DNA of 33,830 nucleotides from NCBI GenBank assembly GCA_022508665.1, contig JAFLUT010000015.1, positions 2,160 through 35,989 on the forward strand, written 5' to 3'. This stretch comes from Prevotellaceae bacterium (GTDB taxonomy: Bacteria; Bacteroidota; Bacteroidia; Bacteroidales; Bacteroidaceae). The notes under the pieces were generated by a model that worked only from the letters and a program-made list of their open reading frames with translations, made no database searches and had not been told where the DNA came from. Numbering within the stretch: position 1 is the stretch's first letter; the number at the start of each line of letters is the position of its first letter. Below are positions 12,381-27,224 of this stretch, piece after piece. The translations under genes and the position numbers were made by a program.

Positions 12381-12452
12381 TGGGATATGGTGTAATTGGC
12401 AACACAACAGATTCTGGTCCTGTTATTCTTGGTTCGAGCCCAGGTATCCCAA
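12381..12452 (+). tRNA. tRNA-Gln (anticodon CTG)
   Basis: 72 nt folding as a cloverleaf: acceptor TGGGATA/TATCCCA with the U1-A72 pair typical of tRNA-Gln, D stem GTGT/ACAC, anticodon loop TTCTGGT giving CTG, and T arm CTTGG-TTCGAGC-CCAGG. CCA is not encoded. The base pair at the bottom of the anticodon stem (31-39) is an A-C mismatch, which is unusual. It has its own promoter and a following hairpin. Confidence 0.92.
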
Positions 12453-12459
12453 CAGAAAA

Positions 12460-12491
12460 TAACGACTTCGGAAAATCCTCCGAAGTCGTTA
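12460..12491 (+). terminator. Hairpin after tRNA-Gln
   Basis: Perfect 13-bp stem (TAACGACTTCGGA with its complement) and a 6-nt loop, starting 8 bases after the tRNA. No long T run follows, so it may act partly as a 3' processing or protection hairpin. Confidence 0.75.
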
Positions 12492-12598
12492 ATCGTTATA
12501 TATGCAACAAGAGAACCGCTTGCGCACACAGGGGCGACACATCAACAAAGGCAATGCTTTGCCATTGCCATTCTCCCCTCACAGCCGTGTACACTCTT

Positions 12599-12682
12599 AA
12601 AATATAACTTATATTTTATAAAATTAAACTTAAATTTATTAAAACATAACCTATATTTTATAAAACATAACTTATATTTTAA
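12599..12682. repeat. Tandem array E: four AT-rich 21-nt units
   Basis: Four units of exactly 21 nt lie at 12599-12619, 12620-12640, 12641-12661 and 12662-12682. The first has perfect 9-base dyad arms (AAAATATAA and TTATATTTT) around one C, plus two extra bases; the fourth matches 8 of 9 and the third 7 of 9; the second is more diverged. The array lies in the gene-free stretch 12453-13149, 93 bases before array C. I see no gene here. Confidence 0.88.
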
Positions 12683-12773
12683 GGAAGAGAGTTGCCAACC
12701 ACTGCACTTTTATGTAGCAGCAACGCACTTCCGTGTCGCAACACAATGCTGCCCCTCTCATTCAAAGTCATAG

Positions 12774-12852
12774 TTATAAACGGTGTGTCGAGATATCGAT
12801 AAACGGTGTGTCGTTTTTACGATAAACGGTGTATCGGAAGCGTGACAAACGG
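12774..12852 (+). repeat. Tandem array C: 17-nt dyads with 6-nt spacers (23-nt period)
   Basis: Units at 12774-12790, 12797-12813, 12820-12836 and a decayed fourth at 12843-12859. The best copy is CGATAAACGGTGTATCG, a dyad of CGATA and TATCG around seven bases. The spacers are exactly six bases and all differ (agatat, ttttta, gaagcg). The same repeat forms array D 14.4 kb away. It lies ~145 bases upstream of the -7 element of the secreted-protein gene. Confidence 0.9.
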
Positions 12853-12996
12853 CTCTTCTTCCTCCCTTCCTTTTTCCAGTATCATTCAAACCCGTAAATG
12901 CTCTTAATCCCCCTTGTTTTTCACATCCTTTTTGAAAAAAACGATGAAAAAGTAAAAAAATGTCATTATTCTTCGCTTATTATCTGCAAAAAAATA

Positions 12997-13004
12997 TATC
13001 TTTG
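12997..13004 (+). promoter_or_regulatory. -7 element of the phase-shifted secreted-protein gene
   Basis: TATCTTTG fits TAnnTTTG and lies ~145 bases before the ATG at 13150, implying a long leader. The leader contains a perfect 8-bp hairpin (CATTTTCT/AGAAAATG, 13085-13108). Confidence 0.6.
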
Positions 13005-13149
13005 CATGAATTTACAGAACAGCGACTATGCAATGCCGCATGTCCGTCAAAGAAAATAAAGGTGAAGTTTATAATAATTCTCTCCATTTTCTGATATTAT
13101 AGAAAATGTGATGAAACGACTAAAAAAACAGTAAAATAAAAAATAAACT

Positions 13150-16100
13150 ATGAAAACTATTTACAAAGGTCTTTTGATGCTTCTCCTGTTTGCAATGGGG
13201 GGGGTAAATTAGCCGTTCAAGCCCAAATCTACGAAAACCGTATTTGGGCAATTTTTGACGGAAAGTCTGGAAAAGATTCGTCAGGTCAACTTAATGATGA
13301 GAAAACCGATGAAGTTTTCCAGCCAACATGGAAAGGCGCACGTGTCAGCACCCATTTTGAGGTGGACAACGCATGGGAAGCCGTGCCAAACAGAGAGCAT
13401 TGCTATAGAAGGAAGGATACAGGTAACGAAGATGCCGATATGGTAAATGGTCATATCAATGTGACGGATGGGAAAAATTCGGCATCATTGTTTTCTGGTG
13501 ATGGTAGGCTTATCAATGGAGTTCGTAACAATAATGGATTGCAATTCAGAGCATATGCAGGTCATTATGATGGTGGTGGTTACGCTACGCTGGAGGTTTG
13601 CCCAAGAGAGTACCGTATATTTATGAACTGTGTAGGAAGTGGTGCAGAAAATGAATGTTCATTCACTATTGACAATGTTCCTAATGGTTATTATATTTGG
13701 ATAGAGGCATTATCAGCCAAAGATTATGGTGTGAGATTTTCTCTATCTGGACCCGCATCGTGCGATAGAATTGATGGGAAAGGAACGGATGAAATGGGAA
13801 AGCATCTGTTTTGTTATAAAACAAATGCTGCTGGCAGTTATGTAATAAAGCCTATAAGTGACTCTGGTAACGGTGCTTGCTATCTTTATTATGTTGCCGT
13901 AATGGATCATCCATGTCCTCTAATTAACTTTACAGTAACTGAAGGCATGTATATTGATATGCAGGCTGATTATATAGGTCCATTCAAAAGTAATTTTGAC
14001 GGAGTTACATTTGATGGTGTGAAAAATGAGTCTATATCGCAGTATTTGGAGTTTTCCTCAGACGATGAAACGGTGCTTGTGGTCGACAAGAAAAGTGGGG
14101 AGATAACAGGAGTCGGAAAAGGTACTGCCACCGTTACGGCTACATTGCCCCAAGGCACACCTTATTATTATAATAATAAATGGAATTATTTGGTGCATCC
14201 AATCACTGCATCTTATAAGGTTGACGTGCGTGATAGCAGAGTAATTTCTAAATCTGTTGCAGAAAGCGAAAACAAAAATTTATGGGAAGAATTCTCTGTC
14301 GGCAATGATGTTAAGATATATATGGGCGGATGGAAGTATCAAAACAATTCGGCTCTTAAAGACGTCTATACGGGGAAGAAGTTGCAGGAAGGCTATACAG
14401 GTAGTGGCGAAAATAAAAAAACTGATTTTTGGGATAAGGCAAAAAAATACTCCGTTGGTTACGAATTGCCAGTAGATTATCAAGCAGAGCCTATCGATGG
14501 ATATATATACTATAACTTGGGTAAAGAAAATGGCAAGAATGAATTCTTGTATGGCGATGCTGCTAACGCGGACAATAATGTGGGTTTGCTTCTTGCAGGA
14601 GATTATGACCTTGAATTTAAGGAGCGTAATCCAGATGTGGTAGTTGACGATATTAAAAGTACTTCTCAAAAAGAGAATCAGGAAGGCAAAGTTAAAGGTA
14701 GAGGCAATCCATTTACTGTGCCATGTTTCGGCTCTTTCATAAAGATAGAACCAGAACGTAATGGTCAAATGACTTTGTACATTATGCAGAATGGAAACTT
14801 GGAATTCGATTCAGACCATAACAATCATTTGATTGGTCGACTTGGCTGGCGTCCTATATATATTGTTGATGAGGCAGGTAATCGTTTGCTAAGCAAGGAC
14901 GTTAAGGCTGTGACGAAGCAAAGGACAATGATTAGTTACAATGATGAAACTTCCGATGTTTATGAGCCTGATGGTGTAACTCTTATGATGAAAGATGGTA
15001 CTCCAAGTGTATATACAGAGGTTGTTAAGGAATATAAAGATGATACAACCCAAGAGTGGATATATAAACGTCATAAAGATCTATTTGATACATATTGGGG
15101 CAGACGTGGTAGTTCTGAGATTGTTCTTGACCCAGATATTACTGGTGATGGTTGGGTTGTGATGACTAAAGCATACGTTAAGTATCAGTTTGACGTGAAG
15201 GCAGGAAAGAGTTACTATGTGTTTGCCAATAAATCTGCTATAGGCTTCTGCGGAGCATCGTTCTTGCCATCCGATAGTCCTTCTGGAGATTATACTATAT
15301 CTGATGATGGAACAATGAGTTCGGCACTGGAAAACAGATTAAATAGTTTTGGTGAAAACGGAAGCCTTACAGTAAATAGTATAACATTCAAGAATACCAA
15401 GGGAGAATTCCATCAAGGTTGGAACTCTATATGTCTGCCGTTCTCTATTACGGAAAGTAAGATGAGGAAAATTTTTGGGACATCAAAGACAGATCGGGTA
15501 CAAACAGGAACATTTATGGGATTTCCTGTTTATGACTACGTGACTACATATTTCGAGGACTATGAAGTACTTCTTTTCAATGGTTGCACAGAAGAAACAG
15601 ACAAAGATGGCAACAAGACAGACAAGGTACACTTCTTCCATCACGTTTATCAGGACATAATTGCAGGCTATCCTTATATGATTTGGATTCCAGAGAATGC
15701 TGACATAATAGGGAAAAAGGAATTTAAGGTAGAGAAAGTCACCATAGAGAAAGAGAGTCTGAATAATAGGCCGACAATCTCGACAAGTAAGCAGTATATG
15801 CCTGTGGGAAGCGGTTTGGAAGGCCATTCTACTATTGATGACTTCACTTTCACAGGCGTTTATAATCCGACAGATATTCCAAAGGATTCTTATTGTGTGG
15901 TGGAGACAGGCATTCGGATTTACAATGCTGTGACATTGCCTGGCTACCGTGCTTATCTGCATCCGTCATATAAGAATAAAGGCACTTCAAACTATGAGGT
16001 GAAGAGGATTTCTGCCACAAATCTGAATGAATTGACATACATTTGGGATGAGGCAAATCCGATAAAGAGTATTTGGGCTGATGAGATGTTAGGCAATGGA

Positions 16101-16223
16101 TTCTCTGCTCCATCAGACGTGTATAGCGTGAGCGGGGTGCTTGTACGCAAGAACTCTACCTCTCTTGAAGGTCTGCCAAAGGGCATCTACATCGTGAACG
16201 GAAAGAAATATCTTGTTAAATAA
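13150..16223 (+). CDS. Large secreted Big_2-type surface protein, out of frame at a G8 tract
   Basis: The ATG at 13150 begins a signal peptide (MKTIYKGLLMLLLF...) that enters a run of eight G (13197-13204) and stops at TAG 13210 after 20 codons. The long frame, open from this tract to 16223, continues with KLAVQAQIYENRIWAIFDG. With seven G the two join into a complete signal peptide ending VQA/Q and a protein of ~1023 residues. The body carries a Big_2-like Ig stretch (VDKKSGEITGVGKGTATVTATLP), a WNSICLPFSI segment typical of Prevotella secreted proteins, and the tail YSVSGVLVRKN...LPKGIYIVNGKKYLVK, like that of the LRR protein at the left edge. Likely exported to the surface; ligand unknown. 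The gene is visibly AT-richer than its neighbours. As written it is off: phase variation or a sequencing error. Confidence 0.85.
13197..13204 (+). repeat. Homopolymer G8 tract in signal-peptide codons
   Basis: Eight consecutive G. Seven or ten would put the signal peptide in frame with the long open frame; eight leads to TAG at 13210. Nearby housekeeping genes contain runs of at most six or seven. Confidence 0.9.
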
Positions 16224-16245: not shown

Positions 16246-16464
16246 ATGAAACAGAAAAAATATGTTAAGCCAATAATAATCGTAAAGAATGTTGATTTGA
16301 AGAATTACATTCTGGGAGTGTCTACAACGGGGTTTAGAACTTCCAAAAGTGGATGCGAGAACTGGACTAATAATATGGAAAGTGTGTTGGGAGATAACAA
16401 CGGTATGTTTCATAATGGTTTTGAGATTGATGATAGTTGGGGAGATGATGCAGGGGCGCTTTAA
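16246..16464 (+). CDS. Small peptide with KYVKP head and acidic tail, downstream of the secreted protein
   Basis: 72 residues from the ATG at 16246; AGGAG at 16232-16236 fits this start better than the GTG at 16240. The pattern of a basic N-terminus with KKYVKPIIIVKNVDLKNYILGVS, a variable middle and an acidic, Trp-containing end (EIDDSWGDDAG) matches a type of short Bacteroidales open frame often found beside exported proteins; some resemble peptide precursors, but no function is established to my knowledge. It lies 22 bases after the secreted-protein stop and shares its transcript, ending at a terminator. One Cys and no membrane segment. Confidence 0.75.
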   Translation: MKQKKYVKPIIIVKNVDLKNYILGVSTTGFRTSKSGCENWTNNMESVLGDNNGMFHNGFEIDDSWGDDAGAL

Positions 16465-27132: not shown

Positions 27133-27224
27133 GCACGCCGTCTGTCGGCAAATCGATAAACGGTGTATCGGTCAATCGATAAGCGGCTCATCGATGTGGC
27201 GATAAACGGTGTATATATATGGTA
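27133..27224 (+). repeat. Tandem array D: 17-nt dyads with 6-nt spacers (23-nt period)
   Basis: Copies at 27131-27147 (decayed), 27154-27170 (perfect CGATAAACGGTGTATCG), 27177-27193 (CGGCTC variant) and 27200-27216 (end changed to TATAT). Spacers are exactly six bases and differ (gcaaat, gtcaat, atgtgg). Same repeat as array C. It fills most of the rsfS-ftsH gap, so it is probably transcribed. Confidence 0.9.

What the first reader, a model, noticed from the sequence alone, without database searches (positions are those of the whole stretch)
13150..13212. G8 tract switches a large secreted protein off: candidate phase variation
The signal peptide (13150 on) and the ~1000-residue body are in different frames, and the shift falls exactly on a run of eight G. 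Seven or ten G give a complete signal peptide with a VQA/Q cleavage site. Long G runs inside signal-peptide codons are a classic slipped-strand on/off switch for surface proteins. The rest of the frame is intact over 3 kb, which fits reversible switching rather than decay.
Basis: partly seen in the sequence, partly recalled or inferred. Interest (0 to 1): 0.8.

Follow-up and report, generated by a model that had tools for sequence, protein, structure and literature searches.

The report
Poly-G off switch in secreted protein
A run of eight Gs splits the signal peptide of a large secreted protein from its body in an uncultured gut bacterium, most likely as one of many reversible on/off switches in that genome, although switching at this gene itself could not be observed.

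Summary
A G8 run (13197-13204) sits in the codons of a signal-peptide-like start. The ATG frame stops at 13210-13212, and the body frame is open to 16223 with no ATG, GTG or TTG before 13362. One G8 is unremarkable in this window; the weight lies in comparison. This uncultured rumen-type Bacteroidaceae genome has 26 G8 and 6 G9 runs but only 17 G7, against steep decay at shorter lengths. Both own-genome paralogs carry a G8 or G9 near their start, one in frame, one out. In 45 genus genomes, tracts at secreted-protein starts (judged by eye) are out of frame in 5 of 6 G9 and 1 of 11 G8, the one being this gene. Two related pairs differ at the run, with bodies aligning from the first residue after it. 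Slipped-strand phase variation is best supported, but no reads and no second strain of this locus were available. Unexpected: 19 of the 31 other runs are followed at once by TAA, TAG or TGA on the G strand, against 85 of 1482 for G4-6, also outside G-strand coding frames. I cannot explain this.

The parts
12997..13004 (+). TATCTTTG, fits the Bacteroidota -7 box TAnnTTTG (consensus recalled, from no call); possible promoter of the gene
   Evidence: Read, printed; not tested
13150..13212 (+). ATG frame: signal-peptide-like start MKTIYKGLLMLLLFAMGGVN ending in TAG
13197..13204 (+). G8 tract, the candidate switch
13205..13207 (+). TAA directly after the tract, the triplet over-represented after G8/G9 runs of this genome
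   Evidence: statistics of the 31 other tracts
13140..16223 (+). body frame, open 1027 codons plus stop, large secreted protein; one Big_2 match just below Pfam's cut-off
16116..16220 (+). 35-residue C-terminal motif (VYSVSG...GIYIVNGKKYLVK), matched at 9 places in the genome including this one, possibly a type IX sorting signal
   Evidence: SprA_N in the genome; no NCBIfam match
16246..16464 (+). 72-residue ORF directly downstream; small ORFs of similar start follow both paralogs
   Evidence: similarity by eye only

Best explanation
The G8 run is a slipped-strand contingency tract. Gain or loss of Gs during replication changes the register between the signal-peptide start and the body of a large secreted protein, so each cell either exports the protein or makes only a 20-residue peptide. 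The assembled consensus is in the off register. It is one of a set of poly-G switches in this genome acting on secreted proteins, possibly type IX cargo, and on surface-carbohydrate genes. Shown: the frames, the tract excess, the tracts in the paralogs, and the length/frame link in relatives. Inferred: slippage at this locus, reversibility, export through the type IX system, surface location and any benefit.
For: Tract and frames at the stated place. Genome-wide runs: G7 17, G8 26, G9 6, while 396 kb of sample gives 4513, 1029, 171, 20 for lengths 3 to 6, so about 2 G8 would be expected by extrapolation. Paralogs at C76 (G8, in frame) and C110 (G9, out of frame) both carry a tract within the first 20 or so codons. 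Genus: of 28 distinct ATGAAA...G8+ tracts, 17 look by eye like secreted-protein starts, 11 in frame and 6 out of frame; G9 out in 5 of 6, G8 out in 1 of 11, Fisher p 0.005. L086 (G9, out) and L087 (G8, in), and L097 (G9, out) and L088 (G8, in), align in the body from the first residue after the tract, E 2e-50 and 7e-78. Tracts also lie in genes of polysaccharide synthesis. SprA_N present, E 3.6e-219.
Against: No second strain and no reads for this locus. This gene is the single out-of-frame G8 among 11, and it has no ortholog to show that the tract, not the bases after it, holds the break. C110 has an internal ATG with its own signal-like sequence, so calling it off is uncertain; without it G9 is 4 of 5 out and p 0.013. 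The 17 genes are partly related to each other, so they are not independent. Inside genes, the rate of frame breaks at G/C runs of 8+ (4 against 16 read-throughs) does not differ significantly from that at A/T runs of 7+ (6 against 48), p 0.44. The T8 control is weak: 19 loci chosen by eye from a capped listing, 5 in frame, 1 out of frame (L159), 1 unclear (L151), 12 uninterpretable. Tract length is a consensus call from an assembly of unknown read type. Not all tract genes concern the surface: one is a BCCT transporter.
Confidence: 0.72

Rival explanations
1. The gene is a fixed pseudogene: one indel in or just after the tract inactivated it and the rest has not yet decayed.
For: Only one allele seen; the gene is the sole out-of-frame G8 in the genus set.
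Against: More than 1000 codons remain open in the body frame, the C-terminal motif is intact, and paralogs show tracts near the start in both states.
Confidence: 0.13
2. The tract length is an assembly or sequencing error and the gene is simply intact.
For: The genome is a 149-contig assembly of unknown read type; homopolymers are the usual error site; break rates at G/C and A/T runs do not differ significantly.
Against: More G8 than G7 runs is not what random length miscalls give; of the 6 breaks at A/T runs listed, at least four look by eye like gene junctions, not broken genes; other genomes show the same tract class.
Confidence: 0.08
3. The tract causes transcriptional slippage or ribosomal frameshifting, so some full protein is made from the G8 allele without any DNA change.
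For: Inference only: a G8 can slip in RNA synthesis; nothing here tests it.
Against: Relatives differ in DNA tract length together with frame; tracts also lie in front of the secreted-protein genes of C77 and C79, in promoter position, where this would not apply.
Confidence: 0.07

Closest known systems
Campylobacter capC/capD autotransporter poly-G tracts (PMC7168839, passages seen)
   Same: Poly-G tracts (G4 to at least G10 for capC in C. jejuni) in the putative promoter of one family and in the coding sequence of another family of autotransporters
   Different: Unrelated proteins and phylum; there capC inactivation did not follow tract length
Treponema pallidum tpr promoter poly-G tracts (PMC7864442, passages seen)
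   Same: Poly-G in front of putative outer-membrane protein genes; for tprL 7 to 11 Gs, varying within isolates
   Different: Transcriptional and measured; the window tract is in coding sequence and unmeasured
Bacteroidales DNA-inversion phase variation (PMC12632263, passages seen)
   Same: Same order of bacteria, surface molecules switched
   Different: Works by recombinases and inverted repeats; 'slipped', 'homopolymer' and 'simple sequence' occur 0 times in that review; no inverted repeats around the promoter seen here
Neisseria opc and porA promoter tracts (as described in PMC7864442)
   Same: Homopolymer over the -35 region or in the promoter spacer; resembles the C77 and C79 tracts
   Different: Not the situation of the window gene

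Membership tests
Slipped-strand poly-G contingency locus | Long homopolymer near the start of the coding region | tested here: met
Slipped-strand poly-G contingency locus | Frames before and after the tract differ, body otherwise open | tested here: met
Slipped-strand poly-G contingency locus | Tract length varies at this locus between cells or strains | not testable with these tools
   No reads, no second strain; the genome-contig scan with paralog alignment A1 gave no relative (records of the own genome may be left out there)
Slipped-strand poly-G contingency locus | Tract length tracks frame state in related genes | tested here: met
   G9 5 of 6 out, G8 1 of 11 out; pairs; none is an ortholog of the window gene
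Slipped-strand poly-G contingency locus | Expression switches on and off | not testable with these tools
   needs culture or metatranscriptome
Type IX secretion cargo | Organism has the type IX core (SprA) | tested here: met
   PF14349 E 3.6e-219; other components not searched
Type IX secretion cargo | C-terminal sorting domain recognised by a curated model | tested here: not met
   NCBIfam 0 families at E 0.1; a C-terminal motif at 9 places is suggestive only, so it is not filed as a member
Bacteroidales invertible promoter | Inverted repeats flanking the promoter | tested here: not met
   In 12400-13300 only AT-rich palindromes at 12596-12683, not around the -7 box (minimum length 14)

The most novel reading that the evidence does not exclude
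This lineage carries a dedicated class of contingency element, a G8-G13 run followed by TAA, TAG or TGA, placed in signal-peptide codons, in promoters 19 bp upstream of the -7 box, ahead of a C-terminal motif and in surface-carbohydrate genes. Its flanking signature is set at DNA level, not by codons, which would imply a specific mutational or protein-guided process behind tract growth or slippage.
Probability: 0.27. Interest if true: 0.75.

Novelty: new member of a known kind. Interest (0 to 1): 0.52.

Why it matters
The one Bacteroidales review whose passages I saw describes phase variation through DNA inversion (PMC12632263). A genome-wide set of poly-G switches on secreted proteins in rumen Bacteroidaceae would be a second, read-countable route to population diversity, testable in existing rumen metagenomes. 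The G8-stop-triplet signature, if it holds, points to an unknown rule for where such tracts arise or persist.

Tried and rejected
Tried and dropped: (1) Curated domains for the body (residues from 13362 on): Pfam gives only Big_2 at 22.0 bits, below its cut-off of 22.8, NCBIfam nothing. (2) Orthologs in named genomes: the scan with paralog alignment A1 matched 22 stretches by pattern and confirmed none. (3) Invertible promoter: rejected. (4) T8 signal-peptide control: too few interpretable cases. (5) The idea that stop triplets after tracts are selected as translation stops: weakened, because they also follow tracts in promoter position and in genes read on the C strand. (6) Frame-break rate at G/C against A/T runs: no significant difference (4 of 20 against 6 of 54, p 0.44). 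(7) Literature: ten searches, judged from listings; four papers opened for passages. No listing showed a report of poly-G slippage switches in Bacteroidales; O. hominis (Bacteroidota) adhesin genes are said to have a putative phase variation mechanism, of unstated kind in the passages seen (PMC13183296). (8) Crp-like identity of the C100 piece: Pfam found nothing in its 82 residues, so it stays a guess by eye.

Script flaw: picked an alignment row in place of the window record, so the window is absent from their own-genome counts (in one search from its promoter and downstream prints); one search repeats the break test with the real window, one search uses the real window, and one search is quoted as the 31 other tracts. 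The break test views every run from both strands.

Full report
What is there. The window is C57:2160-35989 of a 2.67 Mb, 149-contig genome, 99.55 percent complete. Neighbours are housekeeping genes: LpxB, SurE, then the tract gene, ClpP, ClpX, RecQ. At 13150 a signal-peptide-like start runs into eight Gs at 13197-13204 and stops at 13210-13212; the body frame is open from 13140 to 16223 with no ATG, GTG or TTG before 13362.

Is it chance? Inside this window one such run could be: shuffles give 1.47 G7 matches on average. Across the genome it is not. In 396 kb (20 stretches, all from contigs that bear tracts, plus the window), G/C runs of length 3 to 6 number 4513, 1029, 171 and 20, a fall of four- to ninefold per base. 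Genome-wide there are 17 runs of exactly 7, yet 26 of exactly 8 and 6 of 9 (overlapping matches merged by me). Extrapolation predicts about two G8. A/T runs in the same sample fall smoothly (843, 210, 74, 17, 2 for 5 to 9).

Paralogs. The body matches C110 (41 percent over residues 301-953) and C76 (36 to 50 percent in three pieces) of the same genome. Their N-terminal parts align poorly with each other and with the window, yet both have a tract at the start: C76 has G8 inside the signal peptide, in frame; C110 has G9 at about codons 16-19 after its first ATG, out of frame, but an internal ATG with a signal-like sequence follows, so its off state is uncertain. An unrelated secreted protein at C118 has G8 in its signal peptide, in frame.

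Other tracts of this genome. Out of frame at the run: C119 (G9, between a 593-codon open frame and a 112-codon frame that ends in the same kind of C-terminal motif), C3 (G9, acyltransferase 3), C1:60756 (C9, CotH; an ATG lies just after the run), and, by eye only, C63 and C100 (G8, perhaps Crp-type regulators, at contig ends; Pfam found nothing in the C100 piece). C87:7247 was flagged too but not studied. In frame: a polysaccharide biosynthesis protein, glycosyltransferases and an alpha-1,3-fucosyltransferase on C1 and C87, but also a BCCT transporter (C61) and a sulfatase-family protein (C109) (nine proteins tested there, eight, not all tract genes). In 524,572 bases, G/C runs of 8 or more give 4 breaks and 16 read-throughs with at least 60 codons on either side; A/T runs of 7 or more give 6 and 48. 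That difference is not significant (p 0.44); of the six A/T breaks listed at least four look by eye like gene junctions, while three of the four G/C breaks belong to recognisable proteins. Tracts at C77 and C79 lie 19 bp upstream of TACATTTG, ahead of two related secreted-protein genes (in C79 about 120 bp before the ATG), so they look like promoter tracts.

Relatives. In 45 genomes of the genus, ATGAAA followed after 18-48 bases by G8 occurs 29 times against 12 for the reversed pattern (sums by hand). These are 28 distinct tracts; by eye 11 are not secreted-protein starts (mostly chance ATGs) and 17 are. Eleven of the 17 are in frame and six are not. By length: G8 10 in, 1 out (the window); G9 1 in, 5 out; Fisher p 0.005; dropping C110, G9 4 of 5 out, p 0.013. 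Many of these genes are related, so the cases are not independent. Of the 21 exact-G7 hits (reversed control 8), the three that look like signal peptides are in frame. L086 (G9, out) and L087 (G8, in) have nearly the same N-terminal DNA, and the L086 body in its own frame aligns with L087 from the first residue after the tract (E 2e-50); L097 (G9, out) and L088 (G8, in) have the same bases directly around the run (E 7e-78). These are related genes of different species, not strains.

An unexplained signature. In the 31 own-genome tracts other than the window's, the next three bases are TAA 12, TAG 4, TGA 3, so 19 of 31, against 85 of 1482 after G4-6 (Fisher 1e-15). The window has TAA as well. 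It holds for the C77 and C79 tracts and for genes read on the C strand, so codon use does not explain it. In 15 genus genomes, by my hand count, 18 of 45 distinct G9+ runs have a stop triplet (15 of 42 without the own genome); no G4-6 baseline was made for these genomes. Over 151 family genomes HGGGGGGGGTAA occurs 205 times against 75 for the reversed pattern (summed). Some tracts are paralogous (C63/C100, C77/C79), so the events are fewer than the counts.

Secretion. SprA_N is present (E 3.6e-219), and the C-terminal 35 residues match at 9 places including the window, the weaker ones at E 0.001-0.009, but no curated sorting-domain model matched. Type IX export is therefore likely, not shown.

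Verdict. What stays open is whether the tract at this locus varies in nature. The kind of mechanism is known; its spread in this lineage, and the triplet after the tract, are the new parts, as far as the listings of ten literature searches show.

Noticed in passing
window 12776-12852; also 27155-27216 and upstream of the C76 paralog (L053 about 1990-2070): A 23-nt repeat (ATAAACGGTGTGTCG...) three times in tandem upstream of the tract gene, again at 27155, and similar sequence upstream of its paralog.
   Followed up: partly
window 12596-12683: AT-rich direct repeats (spacing 21) that also form imperfect palindromes between SurE and the tract gene.
   Followed up: no
L056 2090-2097 and L054 (minus strand 2923-2930): G8 tracts 19 bp upstream of a -7-like box before two related secreted-protein genes, candidate promoter switches.
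   Followed up: partly
L068 (C119:11310-11318): G9 between a long secreted body and the frame with its C-terminal motif: slippage there could decide whether the protein carries that motif.
   Followed up: partly
L050 and L064 (C63 and C100 ends): Two similar genes that look by eye like Crp-type regulators, both out of frame at a G8 run; Pfam found nothing in the piece of L064.
   Followed up: partly
L042 2964-2971 (minus strand): An in-frame G8 in a fucosyltransferase gene (FucT_N E 5e-30) of a polysaccharide gene region with five G8/G9 tracts in 28 kb.
   Followed up: partly
L199, L207, L211: In three genus genomes an open frame of at least about 370 codons ends 0 to 4 codons after a G10-G11 run.
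   Followed up: no
L192 and L193 (same genome G007): Two copies of similar sequence with G11 and G13 at the same place, a hint of length change after duplication.
   Followed up: no
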